Positions 368 through 30,806 of a stretch of 64,000 bases of DNA are shown in pieces. The notes under the pieces were generated by a model. It made no database searches. It had not been told where the DNA came from and saw only the letters and a program-made list of their open reading frames with translations. The DNA is from Parvicella tangerina. Lineage in GTDB: Bacteria > Bacteroidota > Bacteroidia > Flavobacteriales_D > Parvicellaceae. Location: contig NZ_OU015584.1 in NCBI RefSeq assembly GCF_907165195.1, positions 3,916,027 to 3,980,026 on the forward strand, given 5' to 3'. The position numbers were made by a program, and so were the translations under genes. Position 1 is the stretch's first letter; each line of letters starts with the position of its first letter.

Positions 368-1498
368 ATGGCTGCTACCCTGACCCTAAGACATATTAGT
401 ATTGACAACGCTCCTTGCATTGGTTTATCTTTTCCGCATCGGCCGGATGTTGTGAAGTGTGTTACCTCCATTCCGAATGTGCAATATGACGATGATTCAC
501 AGCAGTATTACTTATATAATTCGAAAAAGAACCTAAAACTGATTTACGCATATTGTAAGGGGCGTGTTTGGGTATCTGGCGATGATTTCTTTAAGCGTGA
601 CAATCCTAACTTGGGTAGCAATCCGATGGAGGCGGATTTTGAGGTATACAGTTCTGAGACGTATCATCGAAAGGTGCCTGAATCTTACTTAAACAAGTTG
701 AAATTGAAGCGTTATTCTGCGAACACTGCACGTGTGTATTGCGGTATGTTTGAACGCTTTATTAACTATTATTTGGAGATTCCGGTGGATCGGATAGACG
801 AGCGTGATATTGAGGCTTATTTAATAAAGATGGTGGAGGAAGGGCGTTCTCCGTCTTATCAAAACCAGATGATCAATGCGATTAAGTTTTATTACGAGAT
901 TGTATTGGACATGCCGAATCGTTTTTATAAGGTGGATCGGCCGATGGCGGCTAAGAAACTGCCGGAGGTATTGAGCACGGAGGAAGTGGCCACCATGCTG
1001 AAGGGGTGTAAGAATTTGAAGCATCAATGCATTTTATCTTTGTTGTATTCTGCAGGGTTACGCAGGAATGAGTTGTTGAACTTGAAGCTGCAGGATATAT
1101 TGAGTGATCGGATGATGATCAGTGTGAAGAGTGCCAAGGGTAACAAGGATAGGATGACGGTATTGAGTGAGCAGGTTTTGCATAAATTACGGGATTATTA
1201 TAAGGTATATCGACCGAAGGTTTATTTGTTTGAGGGTCCAAATGGTGGGAAATATAGTAGCACTAGTGTGGGCAACATCGTTCGTAAAGCAGCTCAGGCC
1301 GCTGGTATTCAGAAGCGAGTGACTGCTCATACGTTGCGTCATAGTTTTGCGACACACTTATTGGAAGCTGGGACAGATTTGCGCTACATCCAGGTATTAT
1401 TAGGGCATGAAAGCACCAAGACTACTGAGGTTTACACGCAGGTTGCGACAAATTTTGCACAGGGGATAAAAAGTCCGATAGATTCCTTAAATTTGTAG
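368..1498 (+). CDS. Tyrosine recombinase (integron-integrase-like, no IntI insertion)
   Basis: A 376-residue site-specific tyrosine recombinase, presumed to insert and excise the cassettes that follow. The catalytic set is complete: R232 (AGLRRNE), the HxxR pair H321/R324 (AHTLRH), H347 (LLGH) and nucleophile Y356. Residues about 100-195 look like the core-binding SAM-like domain; the first 100 residues are an extra N-terminal domain. R232 to H321 is 89 residues, as in XerD-type enzymes. Canonical IntI enzymes have a further insertion of roughly 30-40 residues there, so this is not a classical IntI. The tail (GIKSPIDSL) does resemble the GVRSPLD tail of IntI1. The ATG at 368 is preferred over a TTG 15 bp upstream. 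The stop codon lies 45 bp before the first CGTT core and the gene points into the array, unlike classical integrons where int diverges from it. Confidence 0.9.
   Translation: MAATLTLRHISIDNAPCIGLSFPHRPDVVKCVTSIPNVQYDDDSQQYYLYNSKKNLKLIYAYCKGRVWVSGDDFFKRDNPNLGSNPMEADFEVYSSETYHRKVPESYLNKLKLKRYSANTARVYCGMFERFINYYLEIPVDRIDERDIEAYLIKMVEEGRSPSYQNQMINAIKFYYEIVLDMPNRFYKVDRPMAAKKLPEVLSTEEVATMLKGCKNLKHQCILSLLYSAGLRRNELLNLKLQDILSDRMMISVKSAKGNKDRMTVLSEQVLHKLRDYYKVYRPKVYLFEGPNGGKYSSTSVGNIVRKAAQAAGIQKRVTAHTLRHSFATHLLEAGTDLRYIQVLLGHESTKTTEVYTQVATNFAQGIKSPIDSLNL
1488..1495 (+). promoter_or_regulatory. Possible cassette promoter -7 box at the recombinase stop codon
   Basis: TAAATTTG matches the Bacteroidota -7 consensus TAnnTTTG and overlaps the last codons of the recombinase. 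A transcript would start just before the primary hairpin site and run into cassette 1, as expected of an integron Pc promoter. No TTTG lies at the ideal -33 spacing (the nearest, 1454-1457, is 30 bp upstream), so the call is weak. Confidence 0.3.
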
Positions 1499-1500
1499 GA

Positions 1501-1551
1501 CACATAATGTATATAACAACCACTAGTGGCTGTTATACATTCGTTGGCAAA
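1501..1551 (+). other. Primary integration site (attI-like hairpin)
   Basis: A near-perfect hairpin centred on CCACTAGTGG (1520-1529), with outer arms at 1506-1519 and 1530-1541 and two mispaired positions, runs directly into the core CGTTGGCAAA (1542-1551). It lacks the long variable loop of the downstream attC-like sites and has no matching YAAC arm, so it is the fixed entry point rather than a cassette end. Its ATAATGTATATAA arm resembles the AACAATGTATATAA arm of several attC sites in the array, tying it to the same recognition system. Confidence 0.7.
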
Positions 1552-1579
1552 CATAAAAATGAAAATATTAAAATAAATT

Positions 1580-2125
1580 ATGAAAAAAACATTATTATTA
1601 ACATCAGTTCTAACAGGATTAACATTTTCTGCTATTTCACAGAACTCTAATTGCGAAGATTCTTTAAATATCTTGCAAAAAAAAATAGACTACTTAGAAC
1701 AAAGAAGTCCTGAATATAAAGCAACTTATTTAGCTAAAACAAGCACATATGAATTACAATTTTTAGACGCAAGCTTTGAGAGTTCAGGAAAATATAAAGT
1801 GAACCTTTTGTTAAAAAATACAGGCGATGATAAAGTCATCATCATTATACCCGAAGATATAGACCTAATAGACGAAAAAGGAAATGGTTATAATTGTACT
1901 GATATTAAATTAGGTAACTCAGAAATAAAATACAGTAGTAGCTGGGGTAAGTGTGCTACAAACACTATTTATACCAACGTACCTACTAAATTATCTTTGA
2001 CATTTGACTCGGCTAATGACATTGACTTTATCGCTATTTGTGTTATTAAATTAGTAATGGACAAACAAGCTTATAATGCACCAAAGCTGACACTTAAATT
2101 AAATAATATTCAGACTAAAAAATAA
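1580..2125 (+). CDS. Secreted protein of unknown function (cassette 1, gene 1)
   Basis: A 181-residue protein with an N-terminal signal peptide ending near AISQ. A short coiled-coil-like stretch (about residues 25-45) is followed by a beta-rich domain from about residue 55. That domain is clearly homologous to the next gene: both share SSGKYxV, NTxYxNVPTKLSL and a C-terminal APKxTLKLN block. The fold resembles periplasmic immunoglobulin-like (DUF4352-type) domains, but I do not recognise a named family. It is the first gene after the primary site and therefore best placed for expression from a recombinase-end promoter. Confidence 0.75.
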   Translation: MKKTLLLTSVLTGLTFSAISQNSNCEDSLNILQKKIDYLEQRSPEYKATYLAKTSTYELQFLDASFESSGKYKVNLLLKNTGDDKVIIIIPEDIDLIDEKGNGYNCTDIKLGNSEIKYSSSWGKCATNTIYTNVPTKLSLTFDSANDIDFIAICVIKLVMDKQAYNAPKLTLKLNNIQTKK

Positions 2126-2138
2126 TCAATATACTAAA

Positions 2139-2600
2139 ATGAAACAATTTATAATACTCACAATTATTGCCATCTTTTTCGTTTCTTGTTCAACAGTAAA
2201 AGAAGTCAGCTCAACAACAAATTTTGAAGTGACTTTTGTTAGTGCAAAAGCAGAATCTTCTGGAAAATATAGAGTTGATTTATTAATAAAAAACCTAGGC
2301 GGTGACAAATTAATCTTTATACAATCTGAAAAAGTAACATTAATAGATAAGGAAGGTGTAAACTATACCTGTTCGGACATAGTGTTAGGTAACTCAAAAC
2401 TGAAATATGATAGTTATTGGGGGAAATGTATAACAAACACTCTTTATTCAAACGTACCGACAAAACTATCTCTTTACTTCGACACGGCAGAAAACATAGA
2501 ATACATCTCAACTTGTGCTATTGAATTAATTCTTGAAAAAAAATCTTTAGATGCTCCTAAAATCACTTTAAAATTAAACGACATTTCAACTGAGAAATAA
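2139..2600 (+). CDS. Lipoprotein paralogous to the preceding gene (cassette 1, gene 2)
   Basis: A 153-residue lipoprotein with lipobox FVSC (Cys at about residue 17). From residue 28 on it aligns along its length with the upstream protein, including the conserved cysteine pair around YTCSDI and WGKCITN. The two genes are 13 bp apart and sit in one cassette, so the duplication predates or accompanied cassette formation. Function unknown; a cell-surface or periplasmic role is likely. Confidence 0.75.
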   Translation: MKQFIILTIIAIFFVSCSTVKEVSSTTNFEVTFVSAKAESSGKYRVDLLIKNLGGDKLIFIQSEKVTLIDKEGVNYTCSDIVLGNSKLKYDSYWGKCITNTLYSNVPTKLSLYFDTAENIEYISTCAIELILEKKSLDAPKITLKLNDISTEK

Positions 2601-2606
2601 TAACGA

Positions 2607-2807
2607 TTTGCCAACAAGGGCTATAGTTAATGTGGGTTTTTGTAGTAAATTAAAGGTTTAGAGCAATAAATTAACACCGCTAAATCTTTGATTTAGCTTT
2701 TAAAAGGAAATTAAGTTAAAAACAAAATACAAAGATTTAGCTACGTGCGGAATTGATAACTATCGCATTTCAATCCCACACTAACCATAGCCAGGTCGTT
2801 GGGCACA
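2607..2807 (+). repeat. attC-like site 1
   Basis: Left arm TTTGCCAAC (2607-2615) is the exact complement of this cassette's own start (GTTGGCAAA, 1543-1551). The main stem pairs GGCTATAGTTAATGTGGG with the segment ending CATAGCC near 2792. Inside, GCTAAATC...GATTTAGC (2679-2697) can fold alone or pair with 2729-2741. Core GTTGGGCACA is at 2798-2807. Confidence 0.85.
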
Positions 2808-2877
2808 ATGTGAACAAAAACTGTAAAACTCATTGAAAATTGTTGAAACCGAAATCTAAAATTTTTAAATTTACGTT

Positions 2878-4077
2878 ATGAATACAATAGTAAGAGAACC
2901 AGTAGTAACGTATAATCAAATAAATTTAAGTTTTGCTAATTACACCAAAGAGCGTAAACTTGAACCTCTTGTAAAATGGGCAGGAGGAAAAGAACAGGAA
3001 CTAAAATATATCATTCCGAATCTTCCTGACTATTTTGAAAATTATTACGAGCCTTTTGTTGGTGGTGGTTCAGTATATACAGCAATCCAAGCAAAGGAAT
3101 ATTTTATAAACGACAAAGCTCACGAATTAATTGATTTGTATAAAATCATAGTTTCGGACGAAAGAGAAATGTTTTTCAATGCGATTGAGGAAATAATTCA
3201 CAATTGGGAAGTTTTAGGAAACATTTCGGAAAAAAATCAGAGTTTTTTTATAAAAATCTATAAAGATTTTGCCTGCGGCAAAATATCTAAAGATATTTTG
3301 TCCAATAAAATCTATGAGTTCATTTTAAAAAACTCTAAAGAATTTAACGGACTTTTTTCCTCATATTTTAATTTTAATATTGAGAATTTCCTAAAAGAAA
3401 TAAAGAAAAATTTAGTTCGTAAAACTTCAAGAATGAAAGTTCTTGAACAAGAAAAAGGAAAATTACCCGATAAAGATATTTTAGACAATATCGAAACTGC
3501 ATTGAAAAGTGCGTTTTATATGCACTTTCGACATATTTACAATTTTCATAAAAAATACGAACTAAACCAAGCCTTTTATACAGCAATATTCTTATTCATC
3601 AGAAATTACGCTTATTCTGGAATGTTTCGTTACAATTCAAAAGGCGAATTTAATGTTCCTTATGGCGGAATTGCTTACAACAAAAAGAACTTTAGAAAGA
3701 AGATAGAATATCTAAAATCAGAACCTTTACAAGAATTGTTATCTAAAACTAATATTGTAAATGCAGATTTTCAAGACTTTTTCAATATTTACGAGCCAAC
3801 TGAAAATGATTTTATTTTTTTAGACCCACCATATGATACAGAATTCAGTACTTATGCTCAAAACGATTTTGTAAAAACCGACCAAAAAAGGCTTGCTGAC
3901 TTTTTAATTAATAACTGTAAAGCAAAATGGATGATGATTATAAAAAATACCGACTTCATTTTTGATTTATACAATCATCCTAACATTAAGATTTCAACGT
4001 TTGACAAAACTTATTTAGTAAGTTTTATGAATAGAAATGATAAAAATGTTGAGCATCTTTTAATTACAAATTATTAA
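2878..4077 (+). CDS. DNA adenine N6-methyltransferase, Dam/D12 class (cassette 2)
   Basis: A 399-residue D12-class N6-adenine methyltransferase. Motifs visible: KWAGGK (residues 33-38), the AdoMet-binding FVGGGS (60-65) and the catalytic DPPY beginning at D316. It is longer than Dam (about 270 residues) because of a long insertion between the AdoMet motif and the catalytic motif, as in many type II restriction-modification methylases. The partner gene starts 8 bp after its stop and looks like a nuclease, so this is most likely the modification half of a cassette-borne type II system. The recognition sequence cannot be read from the protein. Confidence 0.88.
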   Translation: MNTIVREPVVTYNQINLSFANYTKERKLEPLVKWAGGKEQELKYIIPNLPDYFENYYEPFVGGGSVYTAIQAKEYFINDKAHELIDLYKIIVSDEREMFFNAIEEIIHNWEVLGNISEKNQSFFIKIYKDFACGKISKDILSNKIYEFILKNSKEFNGLFSSYFNFNIENFLKEIKKNLVRKTSRMKVLEQEKGKLPDKDILDNIETALKSAFYMHFRHIYNFHKKYELNQAFYTAIFLFIRNYAYSGMFRYNSKGEFNVPYGGIAYNKKNFRKKIEYLKSEPLQELLSKTNIVNADFQDFFNIYEPTENDFIFLDPPYDTEFSTYAQNDFVKTDQKRLADFLINNCKAKWMMIIKNTDFIFDLYNHPNIKISTFDKTYLVSFMNRNDKNVEHLLITNY

Positions 4078-4085
4078 TAATAACA

Positions 4086-4862
4086 ATGGCACACACAGAA
4101 GCACAGATAAGAAGAGCAATAAAACCACTATTAACTGTTTATGGCGAATTAAACACATCAGAAGTTAAAAATTTATTACATACAGTTTTAACTTTTGATG
4201 CTGAAGACAATATAAAATCGAAAACCCGCAATGAAACTCTTATTATTCAACGTATAGGTAATATTGTCGCACATCAAGGGGAAAAAGTGAAAGTTTATGA
4301 TGAAGGCTTTATAGTTGATAAAAATTATAGACCGGCAAAATTTTCTCTTTTAAATCCTATTTCTAATAAAGTCATTCAGCCTAATGAAGTAACGACAATT
4401 AAGGAAAAAACAAAACGGTTTATTGGGCGTAAAGTTGACTGGGAAAAAGTAAGAGACAGAAATAATGAAATAGGAGACCAAGGTGAGGAATTTGTTTTGG
4501 AATTTGAAATTGACCGATTAATAGAAACTTTATCGTTAGAAAGAGCAAAAGCAATGCAAAATGTTCAGCATTTGAGTAGATTGCAAGGAGATGGTTTAGG
4601 TTATGATATTTCCTCAATAAATGATGATGGTTCACCTCGTTATATCGAAGTTAAAACAACAAGTGGTGATTTTAATCAACCATTTTTTATGAGCGAAAAT
4701 GAGAGAAGATTTTTTGAGGAATATGGAGACTCTGCTTTTATTTACCGAGTATATAACTTTGATAAAGAAGCTCGACACGGAAACGTTAAAATTATAAGCA
4801 GTAGTGAATTATTTTCCGATTTTACTTTTGACACAACAACTTGGAAAGTAACACCGAAATAA
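4086..4862 (+). CDS. Restriction-endonuclease-like protein, DUF3883-type (cassette 2)
   Basis: A 258-residue protein. The C-terminal half (about 125-255) has the DUF3883 layout: GDQGEEFVLEFE, then DGLGYDISS and YIEVKTTSG, giving the D...ExK catalytic pattern of PD-(D/E)xK nucleases. The N-terminal 100 residues resemble a DNA-binding winged-helix region. Adjacent and co-directional with the adenine methylase, it is inferred to be the cognate restriction enzyme, although DUF3883 proteins also occur in other defence systems. The stop codon is followed within 6 bp by the cassette-end arm. Confidence 0.75.
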   Translation: MAHTEAQIRRAIKPLLTVYGELNTSEVKNLLHTVLTFDAEDNIKSKTRNETLIIQRIGNIVAHQGEKVKVYDEGFIVDKNYRPAKFSLLNPISNKVIQPNEVTTIKEKTKRFIGRKVDWEKVRDRNNEIGDQGEEFVLEFEIDRLIETLSLERAKAMQNVQHLSRLQGDGLGYDISSINDDGSPRYIEVKTTSGDFNQPFFMSENERRFFEEYGDSAFIYRVYNFDKEARHGNVKIISSSELFSDFTFDTTTWKVTPK

Positions 4863-4867
4863 AACAC

Positions 4868-5002
4868 TGTGCCCAACAATGGCTATAAGTAATTGCTTGT
4901 TCTCGCCTACTTCTGAAAATCCTAGCGGATTTTCAGCTTGGTGTGTACTTGCAAAGTTAAGTGCTAAACCACGCAACTACTCATAGCCGAGACCGTTGTA
5001 TG
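4868..5002 (+). repeat. attC-like site 2
   Basis: Left arm TGTGCCCAAC (4868-4877) complements the cassette 2 start GTTGGGCACA exactly (10 bp). Stem AATGGCTATAAGTAATTGC pairs with GCAACTACTCATAGCC. Right core GTTGTATG is at 4995-5002. Confidence 0.85.
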
Positions 5003-5016
5003 TCATTAAAAACTGA

Positions 5017-5592
5017 ATGTATAAATTTTTAACCTTAATCTTGATTTTAATAGTTTCACCAATTTTAGGTGGAATTTATGGAATATTACACGACCAAATA
5101 ACTTACTCTATTTCGCCTGAATATTATTCGAAATTTAAGTTTATTCAGTTCGGACTTGAAAATTGGGGTTTAGGAGAAAATATTGGAACACTAGCAAATC
5201 CTGAAATTAAACTAGAAAACCCAAGATTTGGTGCGAGTATTGTCGGAACTTTAGCTACGTGGTGGGTTGGTATGATAATCGGAATAATTCTTGGACTTAT
5301 CGGACTGATTCACAAAAATGGAAAGATGATGTTTAAAACGACTATGAAATCGTTTATTCTAACAACTATTATTGCATTATTAACAGGAATTATTGGACTT
5401 GGATACGGGAAATTATTCCTGACCGAAAATAGACCAAATTGGAATTTACCTGAAAACTTGATTGATTATGATAGTTTTATAATGGTTGGTTCAATGCACA
5501 ACTTTAGTTATTTAGGTGGTTTGATTGGTCTAATAGCTGGAATTATATATAGCGTGAGACAAAAAAGGAAAACGCCATACAACAAGGTATAA
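5017..5592 (+). CDS. Integral membrane protein of unknown function (cassette 3)
   Basis: A 191-residue protein with about four transmembrane segments: residues 3-25, 78-100, 110-130 and 158-180. No family recognised. The stop codon lies inside the attC left arm, so the last residues are encoded by the recombination site. Sole gene of its cassette. Confidence 0.65.
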   Translation: MYKFLTLILILIVSPILGGIYGILHDQITYSISPEYYSKFKFIQFGLENWGLGENIGTLANPEIKLENPRFGASIVGTLATWWVGMIIGIILGLIGLIHKNGKMMFKTTMKSFILTTIIALLTGIIGLGYGKLFLTENRPNWNLPENLIDYDSFIMVGSMHNFSYLGGLIGLIAGIIYSVRQKRKTPYNKV

Positions 5593-5775
5593 AAATAATA
5601 AGGGTTAAGTACCAAACCCAAAGTTGGTGCAAATTAACAAAGTCCGCCAAATTTACAATTTGACGGTTAAATGAAAAGAAAGTTAACGGTAAAATTGTAA
5701 ATTTGGCTAAGTGATAAACCGAAAAGTAAGTGCATTTTAATCCCTTACTATTCTTATACTAGACCGTTACCACAC
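5576..5775 (+). repeat. attC-like site 3
   Basis: Left arm CATACAAC (5576-5583) complements the cassette 3 start GTTGTATG (8 bp, the shortest match in the array). The inner hairpin at 5644-5666 (CCGCCAAATT...AATTTGACGG) is followed by a third strand at 5692-5706 that complements it. Right core GTTACCACAC is at 5766-5775. Confidence 0.85.
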
Positions 5776-5789
5776 ATTTAAAAAAACTA

Positions 5790-6434
5790 ATGGCATTACC
5801 TGAACATTCAAAAATAATAAACAAAGTTGCTCGTGGAATTTTCAAAGAATATGGAATTGAGCGTAAAGGACAATCTCGCACTTGGTTGGACGACCAATAT
5901 TGGTACACCACAATTATAGAATTTCAGCCATTTAAAGACAGACAAGGAACGTGTTTGAATGTTGGAATAAATTTTCATTGGTACGAACAGGAATATTTTT
6001 CGTTTGATATTGGAAATCGTGAATCGGATTTTATTGATTTTAAAAGCGAAAAACAGTTTCAATCAGAAATGGAATCTTTGACAGAAAAAGCACTTAAACT
6101 GACTATCGAATTGCGAAAGAAAATGGCTGATTTAAAAAGTGCTGAACAGACTATAATAAATCACAAATTCACAAGCGACAATCTTTGGGGTAATTATCAT
6201 CGAGCAATTATTTGCGGACTGAACAACGAACCAAAAAAATCAGACAAGTATTTTAATGAGATTTTAAAAAACGATTTTGATGCTCCTTGGGCCAAAAAAT
6301 TAAAAGATAGAATATTGGTTTTAAAAACTGACCTAAATAATGTAGCCAAATTTCAAAATAATATCGACAGAATTATTGAGAGAACTCGGAAAGAGAAAAA
6401 ATTAAAAGAAATTGAAATAAAAAACGTGTGGTAA
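5790..6434 (+). CDS. DUF4304-like protein, copy 1 (cassette 4)
   Basis: A 214-residue soluble protein. The N-terminal 110 residues (KGQSRTW, then FQPFKD and NVGINFHW) resemble the DUF4304 pattern of a charged aromatic beta-rich domain of unknown function. The C-terminal third is helical and lysine-rich. Nothing suggests catalysis. The TAA stop overlaps the attC arm GTGTGGTAAC. An identical second copy follows 787 bp downstream. Confidence 0.7.
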   Translation: MALPEHSKIINKVARGIFKEYGIERKGQSRTWLDDQYWYTTIIEFQPFKDRQGTCLNVGINFHWYEQEYFSFDIGNRESDFIDFKSEKQFQSEMESLTEKALKLTIELRKKMADLKSAEQTIINHKFTSDNLWGNYHRAIICGLNNEPKKSDKYFNEILKNDFDAPWAKKLKDRILVLKTDLNNVAKFQNNIDRIIERTRKEKKLKEIEIKNVW

Positions 6435-6562: not shown

Positions 6563-6576
6563 ATTTAAAAAAACTA

Positions 6577-24739: not shown

Positions 24740-24762
24740 CATTGATGTTCAAAAGAAAGAAA

Positions 24763-24957
24763 GCCGATAACAATGGCTATACGTAATGCGGGGTGCAGAG
24801 TAAAATTAAACTTTGTAATTCGTATTACGCCAAAGCTAAGTTTAGTATTTTTAGAATCAAATTAAAACACAAAACTTAGCTTTGGCTTACATTGGTGCTA
24901 GACTGAATGTTTGCAGTTTCAAATCCCGCACTACGCATAGCCGGGTCGTTAGCTGCA
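24763..24957 (+). repeat. attC-like site 17
   Basis: Left arm GCCGATAAC (24763-24771) complements the start GTTATCGGC. Outer stem GGCTATACGTAATGCGGG pairs with CCCGCACTACGCATAGCC. Inner strand 24829-24846 complements 24870-24886. Right core GTTAGCTGCA is at 24948-24957. Confidence 0.85.
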
Positions 24958-24975
24958 ATTTAAAATACTCAACAA

Positions 24976-25491
24976 ATGAAAATATATCTGAGTTTAATTC
25001 TCTCAATAATTCTGCTCCTTTCTTGCACAGCTAAACCAACCAATAACACGACTAATGAAGAGGTTTTACATTTTGACAAAATCATCTTCCACACAACTAT
25101 GTGTTTCGGGACTTGTCCGACTTACCATCTTGAAATTGAAAATAACAAATCATTGCGGTTATATGCTGAACGAGTTTACTCTGAAGATAGTTATGAAACG
25201 GACTCTACCAAAACGGGTTATTTCACAGGCTATGTAACCGACACAACATTCGATAAACTTAACTCTGAACTTGGTCAATTGAATATTGATTCTCTTGAAT
25301 TTCCAGAAGAGTTTTGTTGCGATGGTTCTGTAATTACTATTATTCTTTACTATGACGGTAAACGTAAATATCTTAGTTCAATGTGGCCCCCTGCAGAAGC
25401 AAGCAAGTTAATCGGAGTTCTCTATGAAATATGCCGAAATAGTGATTTAGTGCGAACCGAGGACTATTTTCATATTGAAGACGAAAAATAA
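24976..25491 (+). CDS. DUF6438-like lipoprotein (cassette 18)
   Basis: A 171-residue lipoprotein (lipobox LLSC, Cys near residue 17). The mature region (FHTTMCFGTCPTYHLEI and a later CCDGS) matches the DUF6438 pattern, with four conserved cysteines likely forming disulfides. Function of the family is unknown. Sole gene of its cassette. Confidence 0.7.
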   Translation: MKIYLSLILSIILLLSCTAKPTNNTTNEEVLHFDKIIFHTTMCFGTCPTYHLEIENNKSLRLYAERVYSEDSYETDSTKTGYFTGYVTDTTFDKLNSELGQLNIDSLEFPEEFCCDGSVITIILYYDGKRKYLSSMWPPAEASKLIGVLYEICRNSDLVRTEDYFHIEDEK

Positions 25492-25492
25492 C

Positions 25493-25568
25493 TGCAGCTA
25501 ACAATGAGTAAAAATGCATACCTTACCTAACCAAACCGTAACGCTTTTTACTCAAGGCGTTGTGTAGC
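25493..25568 (+). repeat. attC-like site 18 (short)
   Basis: Left arm TGCAGCTAAC (25493-25502) complements the start GTTAGCTGCA. Stem TGAGTAAAAATGC pairs with GCTTTTTACTCA. Right core GTTGTGTAGC is at 25559-25568. Same family as the intron-split site 22. Confidence 0.85.
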
Positions 25569-25582
25569 ATTAAAAAATCTTT

Positions 25583-26011
25583 ATGAGTGTTTTTAAGTAT
25601 AGCTTTAAGTTCTCGACTTATTCCAATTTACTCAGCGGACTGAAATCCTCAAACGAAAGATTTGAAAATGTATCCGTACTGGACGACTCGATGATTGAAA
25701 GTAATTGCTACTATGTCTATCCTATTGTAAATATGGGAAGAGCTGGAAAATTCAAACTCAAAACCAAGATTAAAGAATTACCGAAAAACCGATCTTACAA
25801 TTATAATATAACTGTAGATGTAAGTCCCTTGGTTTTTGGTTTTTTCCTTACTTTCCTAGCCATATCTGTTCTCGCATACTTTACCATTGGAATAACACTC
25901 ATAATAATTTTAGCAATCGTTACCGCAGGAGTCAGCGCCTTGTTCTTAAGCTCTGTCAAGAACCAAGTGTCCGAACGATTGAAAAAATACGCTACACAAC
26001 AAGGGCTATAA
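25583..26011 (+). CDS. Small membrane protein (cassette 19)
   Basis: A 142-residue protein: an 85-residue soluble N-terminal domain, then two adjacent transmembrane helices (about residues 82-100 and 103-122) and a short basic tail. Family not recognised. The last six residues and stop are encoded by the attC arm (GCTACACAAC). Confidence 0.55.
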   Translation: MSVFKYSFKFSTYSNLLSGLKSSNERFENVSVLDDSMIESNCYYVYPIVNMGRAGKFKLKTKIKELPKNRSYNYNITVDVSPLVFGFFLTFLAISVLAYFTIGITLIIILAIVTAGVSALFLSSVKNQVSERLKKYATQQGL

Positions 26012-26195
26012 AAAATGCGGACAGTTGAACTAATTACTAACTTTACTACTATCAATCGCCAAAGCTCCGCTTTGACGTTTTGTATAAATAAACTAAACAC
26101 AAACCGTAGCTTTGGCTTACACTCGTGCTCAATTGATCCCGAAGCTTCGGGAGCTTCTCAATTCCGCACTTTTCATAGCCAAGACGTTGTCAGTA
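25991..26195 (+). repeat. attC-like site 19
   Basis: Left arm GCTACACAAC (25991-26000) complements the start GTTGTGTAGC. Inner hairpin 26057-26077 (CCAAAGC...GCTTTGACG) has a third strand at 26100-26116. Outer stem GGCTAT pairs with ATAGCC. Right core GTTGTCAGTA is at 26186-26195. Confidence 0.85.
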
Positions 26196-26646
26196 ATAGA
26201 ACAAAAATTTCAGATTTCTGGGGGATGTCAACCTGCCAGATTTTTCGAGTAAGTTGATTGAATTAATTTTTCAAAGTCTTGATCTCGAAGATCTTGAAAA
26301 TCATGTCGGAGACTGTTTTCGGAAGTCGCAGAGCATCTTCTAAGACTTTGCAAAGTTAGGGGTTAAAAACCACAAAGTCAAGCGATTGACTTAGATTCAA
26401 TTAAATTAATCGAAAAATAATTAAGTTGGCAGGCGTTCTTTTCTACGACTGTTAGCAACCCTAAAAGGTCATAGGAACTCTTGACATCCCTACGAAATGT
26501 ACCTGAAGCTTTTGAGTTCTACTCCGCAGTTTTTTATGCTGCAAGTTTTATATCTTTAGCAGAATAAAAAAATACTACTGACAACAATGTCTCAAAAAAC
26601 ATAGCCCAAACCTACCTTACCGTTGCTACGTTTTTTAGACTGATCG
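26187..26646 (+). ncRNA. Gene-less structured cassette 20 (copy 2 of cassette 11)
   Basis: The second copy of the 460-bp non-coding cassette, 12,261 bp downstream of the first. Only two differences were read (26221 and 26451). All nested inverted repeats are kept. The neighbours differ from those of copy 1, so the cassette moved as a unit. Confidence 0.55.
26351..26381 (-). promoter_or_regulatory. Promoter inside gene-less cassette, copy 2
   Basis: Same TTGAC/TAACTTTG pair with 18-bp gap as in copy 1 (26377-26381 and 26351-26358, minus strand), directed leftward. Confidence 0.45.
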
Positions 26647-26655
26647 TTGGGCTCA
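26576..26655 (+). repeat. attC-like site 20 (short)
   Basis: Identical to site 11 up to the CGTT. Left arm TACTGACAAC is at 26576-26585; the right core GTTGGGCTCA (26646-26655) belongs to cassette 21. Confidence 0.85.
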
Positions 26656-26664
26656 ATTCTAAAA

Positions 26665-27237
26665 ATGTCAAGAATTATATTAATACCACTATTATTTCTA
26701 TACGGGTTCGCGTATTCCCAACCCGACTCTGACACTATTGTTCTGTATAAAAATAAATGCGGAGTTTCTATGAAGAAGTGCATTTATCATTTACTGCCGA
26801 TTTATTCTCCTGGCAATTTTGGCTACGTAATAAAGACGAGTCAAGATTCTACCCTATTCTCGAACGAAATTGAAAAGTATAAATACTTGATATTTAAATA
26901 TAAGGACGGTTCAACTATGTTTGAAGCTCCATTGCATTATGGACTTATAATTGGCAATATGAAAACTTATTATAGAAATGGAAATCTTGAGTCTTCTACC
27001 TTCTATGGTCATAATCAAAAGGAGAATGTTATCGATTGGACCGATACTCCTTATCAAATTGGTGAATGGAGTTACTTTAACCGAACGGGAAAGAAAGTTA
27101 AAATCGAAAAATACTTGACTCTATACGACACCGATTCTGACGAAAATTCAAAAAGGTTTTATCGAATCCGAAAAATCATTTATTTGAAGGGAAGCAAGGA
27201 TCCAAAAATTACCCAGCTAGACTTAGGCGAGATATAA
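26665..27237 (+). CDS. Secreted MORN-like protein (cassette 21)
   Basis: A 190-residue exported protein (signal peptide ending near AYSQ). Two MORN/YwqK-type repeats are visible: KTYYRNGNLESSTFYG and GEWSYFNRTGKKVKIEKY. Such repeats are common in Bacteroidota envelope proteins; function unknown. The ATG at 26665 is preferred over a TTG 18 bp upstream. It has distant resemblance to the repeat protein at the right edge of the window. Confidence 0.65.
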   Translation: MSRIILIPLLFLYGFAYSQPDSDTIVLYKNKCGVSMKKCIYHLLPIYSPGNFGYVIKTSQDSTLFSNEIEKYKYLIFKYKDGSTMFEAPLHYGLIIGNMKTYYRNGNLESSTFYGHNQKENVIDWTDTPYQIGEWSYFNRTGKKVKIEKYLTLYDTDSDENSKRFYRIRKIIYLKGSKDPKITQLDLGEI

Positions 27238-27245
27238 AAAATAAC

Positions 27246-27446
27246 TGAGCCCAACATTATATAAAATCACATAGGGTTAAGTAACTTAAAAGGTTATTTG
27301 GAACTAGCCAAGTGTGATCGCCAAACCGCTGGTTTGGCTATTAAACTGATTAAATTAATATCAAAACTCAGCGCTCTGGCTCAGTACTAAAAACAAAAAT
27401 TGTAACTTTCCATTACCCTACGTGTTTTATACGAGGCGTTGGCGGC
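27246..27446 (+). repeat. attC-like site 21
   Basis: Left arm TGAGCCCAAC (27246-27255) complements the start GTTGGGCTCA. The stem and inner CCAAACC...GGTTTGG hairpin are near-identical to site 15. Right core GTTGGCGGC is at 27438-27446. Confidence 0.85.
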
Positions 27447-27462
27447 AACCCAAAAAGGATAA

Positions 27463-28212
27463 TTGAGCAATAGGACATACATAGTGGTTTTTCACGGAGA
27501 ATGGCAAGGACAAAAAATCGTTGACATTGGGGACGACCCTTGCTTTGACAATATACCGACATGGGGAATTTGCCGTCCGACCAACAGAAGATCAGTAAGA
27601 CCAGGGGACACCTTATTTTTCATAGCCAAAATTCAAAGTGACTACTTTCTAAAAGGGTGGTTTAAAGTTGGTGAGAAAATTGACTATCTGACAGCAATGG
27701 AACGCTTTCCAAACAGGCAAAACGTGATAATCTCAAACCAAAAGGCAGATCGACAAAATAGATGGCGATATGGAAAGCTGAAAAAGAAGTATACTGAAAA
27801 ATATGGTGACAAAATTCCCTCATTTCTACTTGACCTAAAGAGTGCGGAAGGCACATTCTACCAAAACCCATTAGACAACCACGAAATCGACAATTGGAAG
27901 TGTCGAAGAATATTTCATTGTCAAAGCAGACAATTTGAGTACTGTATAAATGCTAACTGCTGTTTAAAAAATGGGGAGACATTGGACAATTACAAGAACT
28001 ATATTGTTGCTGACCCAGAGAATTGGGATAATGTCGAGGATTTGAATGTAACTCTTGACGACATTCGTTCCTCGACAGGCTTTAACAGACCTATTCGGAC
28101 ACCGATGAATCAACACAACGTCCAACGATTTGATAATTACAAAGAAAAATTGCTCAATTACCTTGAAAAAAGAAAAAGGGCAGCCGCCAAATCGAGTAGA
28201 CTGCCCCGCTAA
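27463..28212 (+). CDS. Nmad-like hypothetical protein, 3' end altered by an intron (cassette 22)
   Basis: About 249 residues from a TTG start (AAAGGA precedes it). The N-terminal part, WGICRPTNRRSVRPGDTLFFIA and LKGWFKVGEKI, resembles nucleotide-modification-associated (Nmad2-type) domains, a weak recognition. A Cys/His-rich stretch (KCRRIFHC, INANCCL) follows. The group II intron begins in codon 243: the original ending would have been Ala-Ala-Asn-Lys-Glu-stop, formed by the attC arm, but the intron replaces it with seven other residues. Probably still functional. Confidence 0.6.
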   Translation: MSNRTYIVVFHGEWQGQKIVDIGDDPCFDNIPTWGICRPTNRRSVRPGDTLFFIAKIQSDYFLKGWFKVGEKIDYLTAMERFPNRQNVIISNQKADRQNRWRYGKLKKKYTEKYGDKIPSFLLDLKSAEGTFYQNPLDNHEIDNWKCRRIFHCQSRQFEYCINANCCLKNGETLDNYKNYIVADPENWDNVEDLNVTLDDIRSSTGFNRPIRTPMNQHNVQRFDNYKEKLLNYLEKRKRAAAKSSRLPR

Positions 28213-28235
28213 AGACTAGCGGGGTGAGCCTCTCA

Positions 28236-28272
28236 CACCACCCAGCGTACGGATCTCGTACTGGGCGGTTCG
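28236..28272 (-). ncRNA. Group II intron domain V
   Basis: On the minus strand a 34-37-nt hairpin opens with GAACCGCCCAGTACG and closes with CGTACGCTGGGTGGT around a GAGA-like loop, followed by GTGAGAGG and a GC-rich domain VI-like stem (CCCCGCTA/TAGCGGGG). This is the catalytic domain, close to the 3' splice site. Confidence 0.75.
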
Positions 28273-28277
28273 ATAAA

Positions 28278-29549
28278 TCAGCTTTTTACTCGGTGGTAAT
28301 ACTCGACCATACTTTCGTACCTCCTCTTCTTCAATCGCTCTATGGTGATGGTTGTGCGTAGTATAGGGCTTTGGGCTACTGCCCATCCTCCCATTCTCGT
28401 TCTGCTCCATGCGTACGCCATTCCTTGGTCTACTCCTAGCCGTATGAGGTTCTTCCTCTTTCGTTCTAGTTTCTTCCAATCGTGCCATATACAATACCGT
28501 AGTCGGTTGCGTAGCCACTCCTCTACTTTCTTTAATTTGCCTTGGATATTCCCCAACCTAAAGTTATTTATCCAGCCCTGATAGATGAGTTTTATCGCTT
28601 CTATCCGTTCTGACAAACTTCTCGGGTGGGTTTTCTTTGTGGCATATTTTAGCTTCCGTTTTAGGGTGTCCCAACTCTCTTTCTTTACTACCACTTGGTA
28701 TTTGCCTTTTTCTCCCTTTTTGTACTTGGAAACAAAGCCATGTCCTAATATCTTAAAGTTTATGGGGCGTCTTATTCCGCTTTTGGCTCGATTGATAGGT
28801 AACTTTAGTTTATCTCGTAAGTACTGATATACTTCGTTACCTATTTTCCTTGCTTCTGCTTGCGTTTTACAGTAGATACTGAAATCGTCTGCATAGCGGA
28901 TGTATTTTGCGCCTTTACCCTTTAAGTGTTTGTCCAGCTGATCTAGCAGTATATTGGCTAGAAGTGGACTTAGTGGACTGCCTTGTGGTATTCCTTTTCT
29001 ACGCTTATGGAGTCGCCCGTTTATTGCTATCGGGGCTCTTAGCCACTTACGTATTAATTTTAAGGTAGTTTGACATTTTACCTTGTTGTAGATCAGTTGC
29101 AAAACTTGGTAATGAGCTACTTCATCGAAGAACGTTTTCAAGTCTATATCCGCTATGTTTTGGTAGCCCTCGTTTATGTACGCTTGGCTCTTCAACACAG
29201 CTTGTTGTAGATTCTTGTTAGGCCTGAATCCGTAGCTACTTTCCTCAAACGTTGGCTCAAAGTAGTTCGTAAGCACTTGACTTACGGCTTGTTGAAGCAT
29301 CCTGTCTATTACTGTGGGCACACCCAACATCCTTGTTTTACCATTTCCTTTCGGAATTTCTACCCCGCGAATACTTGATGCCACATACTTACCCTCTTGG
29401 ATAGATCTTATCAATGCTTTTCGATGCTTTTGGTCGTATGACCGTAGCTCTTTTACACTCATTTTATCTATCCCTGAACTACCTCCGTTTGAGATGACTT
29501 TCTCTCTTGCTTGGGTGAGATTCCTTGGGTGGAGTACGCTTGCTATCAT
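28278..29549 (-). CDS. ltrA: Group II intron reverse transcriptase/maturase
   Basis: A 423-residue intron-encoded protein. Reverse transcriptase blocks: GIPKG-like EIPKGNGKTRMLGVPTV, YGFRPN, the IADIDLKTFFDEV block, RRKGIPQGSPLSPLLANI and the catalytic YADD. The maturase domain X follows (WLRNRLRYCIWHDWKKLERK). It ends without an endonuclease domain, as in intron classes that insert at hairpins or replication forks. It is a complete reading frame, so the intron may be active. Confidence 0.92.
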   Translation of the reverse strand: MIASVLHPRNLTQAREKVISNGGSSGIDKMSVKELRSYDQKHRKALIRSIQEGKYVASSIRGVEIPKGNGKTRMLGVPTVIDRMLQQAVSQVLTNYFEPTFEESSYGFRPNKNLQQAVLKSQAYINEGYQNIADIDLKTFFDEVAHYQVLQLIYNKVKCQTTLKLIRKWLRAPIAINGRLHKRRKGIPQGSPLSPLLANILLDQLDKHLKGKGAKYIRYADDFSIYCKTQAEARKIGNEVYQYLRDKLKLPINRAKSGIRRPINFKILGHGFVSKYKKGEKGKYQVVVKKESWDTLKRKLKYATKKTHPRSLSERIEAIKLIYQGWINNFRLGNIQGKLKKVEEWLRNRLRYCIWHDWKKLERKRKNLIRLGVDQGMAYAWSRTRMGGWAVAQSPILRTTITIERLKKRRYESMVEYYHRVKS

Positions 29550-30055
29550 TTATTCTTTTTGCCTGATTCTTTAAGTGTAAGCTATATCGCTATTCTTACA
29601 CGAATCGAATCCAATTTATCGTTCGGTCCTTCATTAGGTGTATCTATCCCCAACTACTATGACCTCTGCTGACTTCTCCTCTATGCTAACGCGTAGCTAA
29701 GGAGACCTCCCCCGGTAAGAGCTTTTTCTTCCCGTCAATAACTGCCGCATCTACATAACCAACCTTTTCTTGTGGGCGTTACAATGATGTGCTTGCTTAC
29801 CCAAATTGGCTATGCCTCTGTATGCGGTTCCTGTTCGTCAGTACCGACTTTTGTAGTCCTGCTTCCTTCAGTCCTAGCTTCACAACTAACAACCTTGCAG
29901 CTTACTAATGGTTATAGGAACGACCCTAACCCACAAGGGACTTTAACCCTCTAGAAAAATAACACCCGCTTTTCTTTCGTTTCTAATCAATAATTTGCAT
30001 TATTGATATCAAAAACAAAATTCAAACGGGTGTGTCCTGCTCATGCAGGGCACAC
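29550..30055 (-). other. Group II intron 5' RNA region (domains I-III)
   Basis: About 500 bp between the intron 5' end and the maturase start, with no gene, as expected for the ribozyme's domains I-III. The very 5' end forms a hairpin (GTGTGCCCTGC pairing with GCAGGACACAC on the minus strand). Confidence 0.65.
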
Positions 30056-30126
30056 ACAAAGAGTAAAAATCACAGCCCTAACCTACCAAACCGACACTGC
30101 GCTTTTTACTCAAAGCGTTGGCTACC
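30056..30126 (+). repeat. attC-like site 22, right part
   Basis: The remainder of the intron-split site: GAGTAAAAATCACAGCC with the pairing arm GCTTTTTACTC, then core GTTGGCTACC (30117-30126). The left arm GCCGCCA is at 28183-28189 on the other side of the intron. Confidence 0.8.
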
Positions 30127-30141
30127 ATTCTGAAACAAAAT

Positions 30142-30171
30142 CGTAAATGATGCGTAAATGATGTATATTTG
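30142..30171 (+). promoter_or_regulatory. Toxin-antitoxin promoter with direct-repeat operator
   Basis: Two abutting 11-bp direct repeats CGTAAATGATG (30142-30152, 30153-30163) lead straight into a -7 box TATATTTG (30164-30171), 16 bp before the antitoxin ATG. This is the expected place for autorepression by the ribbon-helix-helix antitoxin. Confidence 0.65.
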
Positions 30172-30187
30172 CACCAAACTCATCATC

Positions 30188-30427
30188 ATGGTACGACAAA
30201 GCATATCATTCACAGAGCCTAATGACAAATGGCTAAAAAAACTAGTAGACTCAAAAGAATACACTAGTAAAAGCGAAATTATTAACGATCTGATAAGACA
30301 AGCAAGACAACAACAATCTAAAATTGATTGGATAATTGCTCGACTTGAGATGGCTGAAAAATCTGGATTTACTTCGGATTCGAAAGCTGACATTTTAGCT
30401 CAGGCAAAGTCTTCTGCAAATGGCTAA
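30188..30427 (+). CDS. parD: ParD-type antitoxin (cassette 23)
   Basis: A 79-residue antitoxin with an N-terminal ribbon-helix-helix DNA-binding domain (RQSISFTEPNDKWLKKLV, then SKSEIINDLIRQ) and a C-terminal acidic toxin-binding tail. An ATG at 30158 lies upstream of the -7 box, so the ATG at 30188 is the real start. It overlaps the toxin gene by 8 bp (ATGGCTAA). Confidence 0.85.
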   Translation: MVRQSISFTEPNDKWLKKLVDSKEYTSKSEIINDLIRQARQQQSKIDWIIARLEMAEKSGFTSDSKADILAQAKSSANG

Positions 30428-30707
30428 ATATAAATTAAGCGAAGTTGCTAAAGAAGACTTGATCAGAATTTACAATTACGGAGCTAAAACATTTGGTGAA
30501 ACTCAGGCGGAAAAGTATTTCAATACATTTTTCGAATATTTTGAGGATATCGCTGATAGGCCATTCTCATTCGAGGCTGTTGATTACATCAAAGCTGGTT
30601 ACCGCAGATGTGTTTGCGGAGTCGACTCAATTTATTACAGAATTAACGAAGGCTCTGTTGAAATCATGACGATTATTGGAAGGCAAGACCTGGAAAGTCT
30701 GAAATAG
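30420..30707 (+). CDS. parE: ParE-type toxin (cassette 23)
   Basis: A 95-residue RelE/ParE-superfamily toxin: KYKLSEVAKEDLIRIYNYG, GYRRCVCGVDSIYYRI and VEIMTIIGRQD follow the ParE pattern; such toxins poison DNA gyrase. Translationally coupled to the antitoxin. As the last cassette it would penalise loss of the array end, in line with toxin-antitoxin cassettes in large chromosomal integrons. Confidence 0.85.
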   Translation: MAKYKLSEVAKEDLIRIYNYGAKTFGETQAEKYFNTFFEYFEDIADRPFSFEAVDYIKAGYRRCVCGVDSIYYRINEGSVEIMTIIGRQDLESLK

Positions 30708-30711
30708 TGAC

Positions 30712-30806
30712 GGTAGCCAACAAGATATAAATCACATAAGGTTAAGTAACTAAAAAGGATAATTGCAACTTCCTAATCGTGATCGTCAAACCAGCGGTTT
30801 GGCTAT
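30712..30806 (+). repeat. attC-like site 23, truncated
   Basis: Left arm GGTAGCCAAC (30712-30721) complements the start GTTGGCTACC, and the left half of the site-15 family follows, up to the inner hairpin (GTTTGGCTATT). The right half and CGTT core are missing, so this is the broken end of the array. Confidence 0.8.

What the first reader, a model, noticed from the sequence alone, without database searches (positions are those of the whole stretch)
368..30806. Integron-like array of 23 cassettes run by a recombinase that is not a canonical IntI
Each of 23 consecutive units begins after a CGTT core and ends with an arm complementary to its own start, followed by a stem-loop and the next CGTT. 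That is cassette/attC logic, read directly from the sequence. But the recombinase has XerD-like spacing (R232-H321 is 89 residues), lacks the IntI insertion, and is co-directional with the array. Classical integrons have a divergent intI and an unstructured attI. Inference: a separate, Bacteroidota-specific integron lineage.
Basis: partly seen in the sequence, partly recalled or inferred. Interest (0 to 1): 0.95.

Follow-up and report, generated by a model that had tools for sequence, protein, structure and literature searches.

The report
Distributed integron with hairpin docking sites
Behind a recombinase that falls outside the known integron integrases, this bacterial chromosome carries 23 gene cassettes in a row, and the same kind of DNA hairpin marks seven more cassette-bearing spots around the chromosome, so one enzyme likely moves genes between many docking sites.

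Summary
Confirmed and extended. 23 units follow the recombinase; in all 22 testable units the start is complementary to that unit's own end (0 of 10000 permutations). The recombinase lacks the IntI-specific insertion (R-H 89 residues; integron integrases here 127-136), scores below the integron-integrase cut-off, and lies outside a fully supported IntI clade; sisterhood to IntI is not excluded. Sites differ from canonical attC: instead of bulged bases they carry A.C mismatches on the top strand (G.T wobbles on the bottom strand), often 5 positions apart. The insertion point is a covarying hairpin just before the first GTT (22 of 26 close-clade loci). A covariance model of that hairpin finds eight copies in this chromosome, seven without an adjacent recombinase; each is followed by a unit closing on itself, three by the same 460-bp cassette. 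Twelve of 12 genomes chosen for the recombinase have such hairpins (1 to 18 each); 2 of 12 chosen without a close relative give one weak hit each. In three single-contig genomes 19 of 20 platforms run against GC skew, placing bottom strands on the inferred lagging-strand template. I read this as an integron-like system that IntI-based surveys miss. Recombination itself is inferred.

The parts
368..1498 (+). XerA-like tyrosine recombinase, 376 aa, with a ~100-aa N-terminal extension; candidate cassette recombinase
   Evidence: NCBIfam NF040815 217.6 bits (cut-off 220), TIGR02249 204.6 (cut-off 265) in two stretches; R232, H321, R324, Y356 invariant in a 30-sequence alignment; outside the IntI clade
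1503..1542 (+). attI-type docking hairpin (platform P1) ending 5 nt before the first GTT
   Evidence: 22 of 26 close-clade loci have it, arms covary 146 of 152 WC cells in the 19 longest; model R1 best hit of the genome, but this copy is one of its 21 training sequences
1543..2797 (+). cassette 1 (attC-like site 2613-2800)
   Evidence: own-end closure 9 nt
2798..4994 (+). cassette 2: D12-class DNA adenine methyltransferase and NOV_C-domain protein (site 4875-4997)
   Evidence: closure 10 nt; Pfam
4995..5765 (+). cassette 3 (site 5581-5768)
   Evidence: closure 8 nt
5766..6552 (+). cassette 4 (site 6433-6555)
   Evidence: closure 10 nt; 787 of 787 identical to cassette 5
6553..7339 (+). cassette 5, identical copy of cassette 4 (site 7220-7342)
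   Evidence: closure 10 nt
7340..8896 (+). cassette 6 (short site 8840-8899)
   Evidence: closure 9 nt
8897..9882 (+). cassette 7: penicillin-binding/transpeptidase-domain protein (site 9763-9885)
   Evidence: closure 9 nt; Pfam PF00905
9883..11621 (+). cassette 8: DUF6998 and UDG-superfamily proteins (site 11435-11624)
   Evidence: closure 10 nt
11622..12915 (+). cassette 9: rRNA adenine dimethylase family gene on the - strand (site 12793-12918)
   Evidence: closure 9 nt; Pfam PF00398
12916..13924 (+). cassette 10 (site 13805-13927)
   Evidence: closure 9 nt
13925..14384 (+). cassette 11: 460-bp cassette holding no complete ORF of 60 aa or more; also first cassette of platforms P2, P3 and P5 (site 14322-14387)
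   Evidence: closure 10 nt; ORF list; 100% copy at C1:188775-189234, 458/460 copies
14385..16922 (+). cassette 12: metallo-beta-lactamase-fold hydrolase and two further ORFs (site 16803-16925)
   Evidence: closure 10 nt; Pfam
16923..20055 (+). cassette 13: ArsR-type regulator, MerT-HMA, HMA + pyridine-nucleotide-disulphide oxidoreductase (site 19936-20058)
   Evidence: closure 9 nt; Pfam
20056..20878 (+). cassette 14 (site 20758-20881)
   Evidence: closure 9 nt
20879..21446 (+). cassette 15 (site 21262-21449)
   Evidence: closure 10 nt
21447..22102 (+). cassette 16 (site 21917-22105)
   Evidence: closure 10 nt
22103..24947 (+). cassette 17: cNMP-binding regulator, flavodoxin-fold and DJ-1/PfpI proteins (site 24769-24950)
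   Evidence: closure 9 nt; Pfam
24948..25558 (+). cassette 18 (short site 25500-25561)
   Evidence: closure 10 nt
25559..26185 (+). cassette 19 (site 25998-26188)
   Evidence: closure 10 nt
26186..26645 (+). cassette 20: second copy of cassette 11 (site 26583-26648)
   Evidence: 458 of 460 identical
26646..27437 (+). cassette 21 (site 27253-27440)
   Evidence: closure 10 nt
27438..30116 (+). cassette 22, its site split by a group II intron; 3' part of the site at 30056-30119
   Evidence: remaining left arm complementary to the unit's start over 7 nt
28190..30055 (-). group II intron with reverse transcriptase/maturase (28278-29549), inserted in the R'' box on the bottom strand at TTGT/T (boundary ambiguous by one base)
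   Evidence: Rfam RF02001, RF01998; TIGR04416 349.8 bits; boundaries
30117..30806 (+). cassette 23: ParD/ParE-type pair; its terminal site (from 30719) is truncated
   Evidence: closure 10 nt; Pfam

Best explanation
This is likely an integron-like gene-capture system in which one XerA-like tyrosine recombinase (368-1498) would move circular gene cassettes between folded attC-like hairpins and hairpin attI-type docking sites placed at eight points of the same chromosome. Shown from sequence: cassette boundaries at C/GTT, with each testable cassette's start complementary to its own end; a conserved covarying hairpin a few nt before the first GTT of each platform; satellites without an adjacent recombinase, each followed by a closing unit; one 460-bp cassette in first position at three satellites. 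Inferred: the recombinase binds the folded bottom strands, which are better paired because top-strand A.C mismatches are G.T wobbles there and which sit on the lagging-strand template; it cuts before GTT, releases cassettes as circles and inserts them at the hairpins, in cis and in trans. The wobbles would take over the strand-marking role that extrahelical bases, read by the extra IntI helix, have in canonical integrons.
For: Closure 22 of 22, 0 of 10000 permutations. Chain of 21 against none longer than 1 in the control. Bottom strand more stable 21 of 21 stems. R-H spacing is bimodal in 194 aligned relatives: 84-102 in 123, 127-136 in 66, five partial. IntI one clade 100, close clade one clade 99. 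18 of 19 close-clade loci with sequence have a cassette downstream; 0 of 33 loci of relatives from other phyla have a chain of two or more. A.C at stem positions 7 (49 of 88 sites) and 12 (52 of 88), detector blind to A.C; IntI sites have one-sided bulges, few A.C and never two in a site; non-redundant set of 33: 53 A.C, 2 C.A. attI hairpin: 22 of 26 score 12 or more, 16 score 16 or more; 146 of 152 WC cells against exchange mean 62.7, max 90; covariation score 0.520 against 0.128; IntI controls 2 of 63 and 7 of 116 at 12, none at 16. Eight platforms in this genome, each followed by a unit closing with 9-10 nt. 12 of 12 recombinase genomes against 2 of 12 others with weak hits. 19 of 20 platforms against GC skew. 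No IntI-type gene among this genome's other hits. Intron in R'' at TTGT/T, the target described for group IIC-attC introns (PMC7923331).
Against: No recombination, binding or circular cassette has been observed. The tree does not resolve the relation to IntI. Three of 26 close-clade loci have no hairpin or one no better than shuffles (L041, L257, L258) and a fourth (L202) scores only 8; L251 has a hairpin but no cassette in 2.6 kb, and in L245 the first one detected is 10 kb away. 8 of 23 wider loci with at least 3 kb downstream show no cassette. Only 15 of 33 non-redundant sites have two A.C exactly 5 apart. In attI hairpins A.C outnumbers C.A 10 to 1, but 5 G.T or T.G pairs lean the other way. 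Cassette sharing between species is thin: one pair at 89% over 795 bp among co-directional loci; cassette 11 was found in none of 294 other genomes beyond short matches, with two candidates scored per genome. P6's first site has a truncated 3' arm. Origin and terminus are inferred from sampled GC skew; samples around P7 disagree in sign, and dnaA lies at 462 kb.
Confidence: 0.83

Rival explanations
1. The arrays are ordinary attC arrays whose cassettes are moved by host XerC/XerD or by a canonical IntI elsewhere, and the adjacent recombinase is a passenger.
For: A XerD gene is present in this genome (L002, TIGR02225 336.4 bits over cut-off 329.6). Sites follow the R''/R' closure logic of attC.
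Against: None of this genome's other recombinase hits is of IntI type: those fetched have spacings of 89-102, and the two longest score 46-47 bits in TIGR02249 (one weak hit was not fetched). Xer-like hits turned up in 40 of 40 relatives searched, but attI hairpins track the special recombinase: 12 of 12 against 2 of 12 with weak hits. The sites lack canonical extrahelical bases. In 15 of 19 close-clade loci the array starts within 70 nt of the recombinase.
Confidence: 0.08
2. The recombinase lineage is the sister or source of IntI: one origin of cassette capture, with IntI later gaining the extra helix and extrahelical bases, or this lineage losing them.
For: An AU test does not reject close clade plus IntI as one clade (p 0.595; the constrained tree even scored higher). 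Site logic is shared: closure at GTT, bottom-strand polarity.
Against: The quick tree places archaeal XerA-like and proteobacterial Xer-like rows without arrays between them, but with modest support.
Confidence: 0.45
3. The palindrome before the first GTT is a double-stranded inverted binding site or a transcription terminator, not a folded recombination site.
For: Perfect palindromes would also serve two protomers on duplex DNA, and canonical attI is used double-stranded (PMC8946536, passages read).
Against: No T-run follows it in the window. It occurs at seven places without an adjacent recombinase gene, each time against a cassette start. Imperfect pairs are A.C 10 times and C.A once in 43 distinct hairpins, which favours bottom-strand folding over a symmetric duplex site, though 5 G.T or T.G pairs do not.
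Confidence: 0.35
4. The satellites are relics of past whole-integron duplications that lost the recombinase gene and are no longer used.
For: P1 and P6 share sequence upstream of the hairpin that resembles the recombinase's last codons; P3, P5 and P7 share upstream sequence.
Against: Satellites P2, P3 and P5 have the same cassette in first position at 99.6-100% identity to cassette 11, which suggests recent use.
Confidence: 0.2

Closest known systems
Integrons with IntI (sedentary chromosomal integrons, class 1 integrons)
   Same: Cassette arrays, GTT core, start/own-end complementarity, bottom strand the more stable hairpin, ORFs mostly in array direction, toxin-antitoxin and resistance-type cassettes
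   Different: Recombinase outside the IntI clade and without its extra domain; G.T wobbles in place of extrahelical bases; attI is a hairpin; many attI sites per chromosome; bottom strand on the inferred lagging-strand template, where sedentary integrons prefer the leading one (PMC11023631, passages read)
Treponema integrons
   Same: Integrase transcribed towards attI, same direction as cassettes (PMC3607928, passages read)
   Different: Those carry IntI; in the passages read, the attI of one species is described as a short R-like segment, not a hairpin
CALINs (attC clusters lacking IntI)
   Same: Recombinase-less cassette arrays elsewhere in the chromosome
   Different: Each satellite here has its own attI-type hairpin matching that of the recombinase locus
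XerA / NF040815 tyrosine recombinases, XerC, XerD
   Same: Best-scoring family (217.6 bits) and R-H spacing of the Xer type
   Different: Just below the NF040815 cut-off (217.6 against 220), extra N-terminal domain (0 of 61 rows of other groups have it), cassette arrays adjacent
Integron-like subgroup of tyrosine recombinases (Smyshlyaev et al., PMC8138268)
   Same: That subgroup is said to hold members in which the IntI insertion is not fully conserved (passages read), so insertion-less kin of IntI were already noticed
   Different: The passages read call the insertion essential for integron function and describe no cassette arrays or docking sites for members without it
Group IIC-attC introns
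   Same: Intron antisense to the cassettes in R'' at TTGT/T (PMC7923331, passages read)
   Different: Host site is of the wobble type; the intron's class was not tested here

Membership tests
Integron (IntI-type) | Recombinase with the IntI-specific additional domain | tested here: not met
   R-H spacing 89 against 127-136 in IntI rows; TIGR02249 204.6 bits against cut-off 265, split in two stretches
Integron (IntI-type) | Recombinase inside the IntI clade | tested here: not met
   18 IntI rows form one side of a branch (support 100), 16 close rows another (99); sister relation not excluded
Integron (IntI-type) | attC sites with R''/R' boxes, cassette start complementary to own R'' | tested here: met
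   22 of 22 testable units
Integron (IntI-type) | Extrahelical bases on one arm of the folded bottom strand | tested here: not met
   Close clade bulges 26 and 37 on the two arms in 89 sites; IntI sites 58 against 1 in 32
Integron (IntI-type) | Bottom strand folds better than top | tested here: met
   21 of 21 stem-only, 19 of 21 full
Integron (IntI-type) | attI next to the recombinase, used as duplex | tested here: inconclusive
   A site is next to the recombinase but is a conserved hairpin; duplex or folded use not testable here
Integron (IntI-type) | Site-specific excision and integration of circular cassettes | not testable with these tools
   Needs bench assays
Integron (IntI-type) | Cassette promoter Pc | not tested
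   No promoter analysis was done
XerC/XerD (dif recombinases) | Scores above TIGR02224/TIGR02225 cut-offs, groups with Xer | tested here: not met
   XerD 192 against 329.6 and XerC 174.4 against 335.15 bits; 8 of 9 rows labelled Xer lie together on another branch
XerA (NF040815) | Score above cut-off 220 | tested here: inconclusive
   217.6 for the window protein, 229.7 for relative L072, 196-210 for L060, L124 and L053
Group IIC-attC intron | Insertion in attC bottom strand at TTGT/T, antisense to cassettes | tested here: met
   Boundaries, ambiguous by one base; rule from PMC7923331 (passages)
Group IIC-attC intron | Intron-encoded protein in the IIC-attC clade | not tested
   Only TIGR04416 and Rfam D1D4 matches obtained

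The most novel reading that the evidence does not exclude
A distributed, hairpin-to-hairpin integron: one Xer-type recombinase without the IntI helix exchanges cassettes among up to some 18 folded attI platforms per chromosome, both partners recombining as lagging-strand hairpins whose strand identity is written in paired G.T wobbles, possibly evolved independently of IntI.
Probability: 0.4. Interest if true: 0.97.

Novelty: new variant of a known kind. Interest (0 to 1): 0.92.

Why it matters
The additional domain is described as essential for integron function, and its presence is how integrons are searched for (PMC8138268, PMC2426708, PMC9668308; passages read). Bacteroidota are listed among phyla with integrons (PMC8618304, passages), but IntegronFinder 2.0 names one complete integron in Bacteroidetes proper, Salinibacter ruber M1 (PMC9024848, passages read). 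A lineage that captures cassettes without that domain would mean that a large reservoir of mobile genes has been overlooked: 26 of 396 class-level genomes sampled, this one included, have a close recombinase. It also makes two open questions testable: how a recombinase tells the two strands of a hairpin apart without extrahelical bases, and whether attI can work as a folded site. Many platforms per chromosome would give a cell several independently placed cassette rows instead of one.

Tried and rejected

My idea that the N-terminal extension is HARP-like was never tested and is not claimed.

AU test for separation from IntI: not rejected, so 'independent origin' was dropped from the main claim (on 91 of the 97 rows; six long-branch or odd rows, L005, L140, L103, L158, L064 and L068, were left out by me). 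The 97 rows themselves were my choice from the fetched recombinases.

ORF-direction counts in GC-rich IntI arrays (13 same, 27 opposite) were judged uninformative: spurious long antisense ORFs.

Search for cassette exchange between species: one 89% pair among co-directional loci (L060, L250) and a 67% stretch of 569 bp between window cassette 13 and L250; the other cross-locus matches are the same places fetched twice or viral-collection and IntI-type contigs. Cassette 11 in 295 class genomes: this genome plus five with short chance-like matches; that search scored two candidates per genome and missed three further copies in this genome.

The hairpin scan with simple scores failed for L041, L257 and L258. 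In one search, 30 of 32 loci had a hairpin and 20 closed; two of the 32 (L361, L362) came from the genomes without a close relative, one of them closing by only 8 nt. That leaves 19 of 30 closing with 9-10 nt within 1.5 kb; random GTTs in the same loci closed in 31 of 697, a rate that includes real arrays.

The array walker found no full cassette at P6 because its site lacks the 3' arm; the 10-nt closure there is.

Literature searches for a described system of this kind. Nothing in the listings or the passages read describes it; no paper was read whole, and the library lacks preprints and most subscription journals, so this is not proof of absence.

Full report
What is in the window. A 376-aa tyrosine recombinase (ATG 368, stop 1498) is followed 44 nt later by the first of 23 consecutive units ending near 30806. 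Each unit starts with GTT and ends with a box complementary to its own start, then a hairpin, then CGTT of the next unit. For the 22 units where both ends are present, 8-10 nt match contiguously (mean 9.5); the next unit's start matches by 4.2 on average; 0 of 10000 permutations reach the observed sum. An automatic chain detector finds 21 linked units in the array and no chain above length 1 in 33-64 kb of the same window. This register is what a crossover between C and GTT leaves behind in integron arrays (established knowledge of attC sites). The 21 complete sites fall into length classes of 60-66, 123-126 and 182-191 nt.

The exceptions are informative. Unit 22's site is split by a group II intron on the minus strand (Rfam RF02001 and RF01998; reverse transcriptase/maturase TIGR04416). 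Its boundaries, 28190-30055 and ambiguous by one base, put the insertion in the R'' box, bottom strand, between TTTGT and TGGCGG. Group IIC-attC introns are described as inserting in attC bottom strands at R'', consensus TTGT/T, antisense to cassettes (PMC7923331, passages read). An unrelated element thus seems to treat this site as an attC bottom strand. Unit 23's site is truncated.

The recombinase. Its best NCBIfam match is NF040815 (XerA type, 217.6 bits, cut-off 220); the integron-integrase model TIGR02249 scores 204.6 against a cut-off of 265, in two pieces, whereas three IntI proteins from fetched loci score 455-495 in one piece. Across 194 aligned relatives, the residues between the catalytic arginine and histidine number 84-102 in 123 and 127-136 in 66, with five partial reads; the window has 89. 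In a tree of 97 rows that I chose, with sparsely filled columns dropped, 18 IntI rows are one side of a branch (support 100), the 16 close rows another (99), and 8 of 9 XerC/XerD-type rows lie together elsewhere. An AU test does not reject IntI plus the close clade as sisters (p 0.595). So it is not an IntI, but whether cassette capture arose once or twice is open. A conserved N-terminal domain is present in 16 of 16 close and 14 of 20 wider Bacteroidota rows and in 0 of 61 others. The host genome (one contig, 3.98 Mb) has ten other tyrosine-recombinase hits; those fetched have spacings of 89-102, and two with open frames over 400 aa score only 46-47 bits in TIGR02249. One weak hit was not fetched. 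None of those examined is of IntI type.

The sites differ from canonical attC. With scoring blind to A.C pairs, 88 close-clade sites have an A on the 5' arm opposite a C on the 3' arm at stem position 7 (49) and 12 (52), most often 5 apart; C.A is rare. In a non-redundant set of 33 sites there are 53 A.C and 2 C.A; 31 sites have at least one and 15 have two exactly 5 apart. Arrays beside IntI show 5'-arm bulges (58, against 1 on the other arm, in 32 sites) and a few A.C but never two in one site. On the bottom strand A.C becomes a G.T wobble, so that strand folds better: 21 of 21 for stems, 19 of 21 for whole sites in the window. In canonical integrons two extrahelical bases mark the strand, and the second is contacted by the extra helix alpha-I2 of IntI (PMC3053210, passages read). 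Here both the extra domain and the one-sided bulges are missing together; that the wobbles took over their role is my inference.

The docking site. Directly before the first GTT lies a palindrome, in 22 of 26 close-clade loci with hairpin score 12 or more; in the 19 with at least 8 pairs, arms pair with their own partner in 146 of 152 cells against 62.7 (max 90) when exchanged between loci. The covariation score of the 21-row alignment is 0.520 against 0.128 for shuffles and 0.024-0.174 for slid registers. Regions beside IntI genes give 2 of 63 and 7 of 116 at the same cut-off, none at 16 or more, where the close clade has 16 of 26. Among 43 distinct hairpins the imperfect pairs include A.C 10 times and C.A once, the same strand polarity as in the cassette sites; 5 G.T or T.G pairs go the other way. 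Canonical attI is recombined as duplex (PMC8946536, passages read).

One chromosome, eight platforms. Cassette 11 (460 bp) has a 100% copy at 188.8 kb, and what precedes that copy is another such hairpin. A covariance model built from 21 hairpins, one of them from this genome, finds eight matches in the genome at E up to 10: P1 in the window and P2-P8 at 189.2, 1342.3, 1525.1, 1725.3, 2125.6, 1883.0 and 190.8 kb. All eight are followed by a unit that closes on its own start with 9-10 nt. Cassette 11 is the first cassette at P2, P3 and P5 (460/460 and 458/460). P6's first site has lost its 3' arm. P2-P8 have no recombinase hit within 50 kb, so movement there, if it happens, is in trans.

The pattern is general. 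The 12 genomes I chose from the 25 others with a close recombinase all have hairpin matches, 103 listed; 7 of these are the same palindrome read on the other strand in G312, leaving 96, 1 to 18 per genome. Only 150 candidates per genome were scored, so this is likely a lower bound, and some of the weakest may be chance. Twelve class members picked because they had no close recombinase give two weak matches, E 0.093 and 0.443. Of 30 loci fetched from the first set, 19 close with 9-10 nt within 1.5 kb; eleven of these 19 are not the recombinase locus (my comparison). Close recombinases (E up to 1e-85) occur in 26 of 396 genomes sampled from the class, this one included. Of 19 close-clade loci with at least 1.2 kb downstream, 18 have a cassette; L251 does not, and in L245 the first one detected is 10 kb away. 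Of 23 wider loci with at least 3 kb (one of them not Bacteroidota), 15 have at least one and 10 at least two. Thirty-three loci of relatives from other phyla, 30 with spacings of 87-98 and three partial or untyped (L082, L091, L105), have no chain of two; their stretches are 5-21 kb.

Orientation. GC skew sampled in 20-kb pieces is mostly positive from 0 to about 2.0 Mb and mostly negative from there to 3.98 Mb, so the origin is inferred near the contig ends; dnaA lies at 462 kb. By arm, all eight platforms run against it, which places array bottom strands on the lagging-strand template; the samples around P7 disagree in sign. In two further single-contig genomes, 6 of 7 and 5 of 5 platforms do the same (several of those are model matches without a checked cassette, one with E 0.36). 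19 of 20 has a two-sided binomial p of about 4e-5 (my arithmetic). Sedentary integrons are reported to prefer the opposite arrangement (PMC11023631, passages read).

Mechanism, with its status. Shown: anatomy, boundaries, polarity, conservation, multiplicity, repeated copies. Inferred: the recombinase recognises the folded bottom strands during lagging-strand synthesis, cuts before GTT, releases circles and inserts them at attI hairpins at P1 or any satellite. Untested: expression, promoters, activity.

Place among known things. It works like an integron; it fails three tested features of the IntI-type integron (additional domain, clade, extrahelical bases). Co-directional integrase and recombinase-less clusters are known separately (Treponema, CALINs), and insertion-less members of an 'integron-like' recombinase subgroup have been noted (PMC8138268, passages read). 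I call it a new variant of a known kind. Surveys using IntI-domain filters would not report it (PMC2426708, PMC9668308, passages read), and IntegronFinder 2.0 names a single complete integron in Bacteroidetes proper (PMC9024848, passages read). NCBI's own title for NF040815 includes 'integron integrase', so the protein name is not new; the array, sites and platforms are what I found no description of.

Host.

Noticed in passing
L124 726-9957 (12 cassettes) and L120, L123, L132, L133, L140, L150, L158: Insertion-less recombinases on viral-collection contigs border arrays whose site polarity is the mirror image: 22 of 22 cassette ORFs run against the site polarity, against 12 of 120 in the co-directional group (L132 and L133 share their cassettes). 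Possibly a second architecture of the same system.
   Followed up: partly
13925-14384 and 26186-26645, plus genome 188.8 kb, 1342 kb and 1725 kb: A 460-bp cassette without a complete ORF of 60 aa or more has five copies in this genome and sits first at three platforms; it may carry a promoter or an RNA.
   Followed up: partly
2613-30119, sites: Site lengths cluster at about 60, 123 and 188 nt here and in relatives, steps of some 63-65 nt, as if terminal loops were built from one or two added modules.
   Followed up: no
16923-20055: A 3.1-kb cassette carries a mercury-type set (ArsR-family regulator, MerT-HMA, HMA plus pyridine-nucleotide-disulphide oxidoreductase), the largest intact cassette of this array.
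   Followed up: partly
8916-9755 and 11689-12489 (-): Cassettes with a penicillin-binding/transpeptidase-domain protein and an rRNA adenine dimethylase family protein; resemblance to class D beta-lactamase and to Erm is recalled, not tested.
   Followed up: no
30795-30825 and 30893-30923: A 31-nt inverted repeat (84%) sits where the last site is truncated, perhaps the scar of an insertion.
   Followed up: no
genome 1342.2-1342.4, 1725.2-1725.4 and 1883.0 kb: Platforms P3, P5 and P7 share sequence upstream of the hairpin, so the docking site itself seems to have been copied around the chromosome by an unknown route.
   Followed up: no
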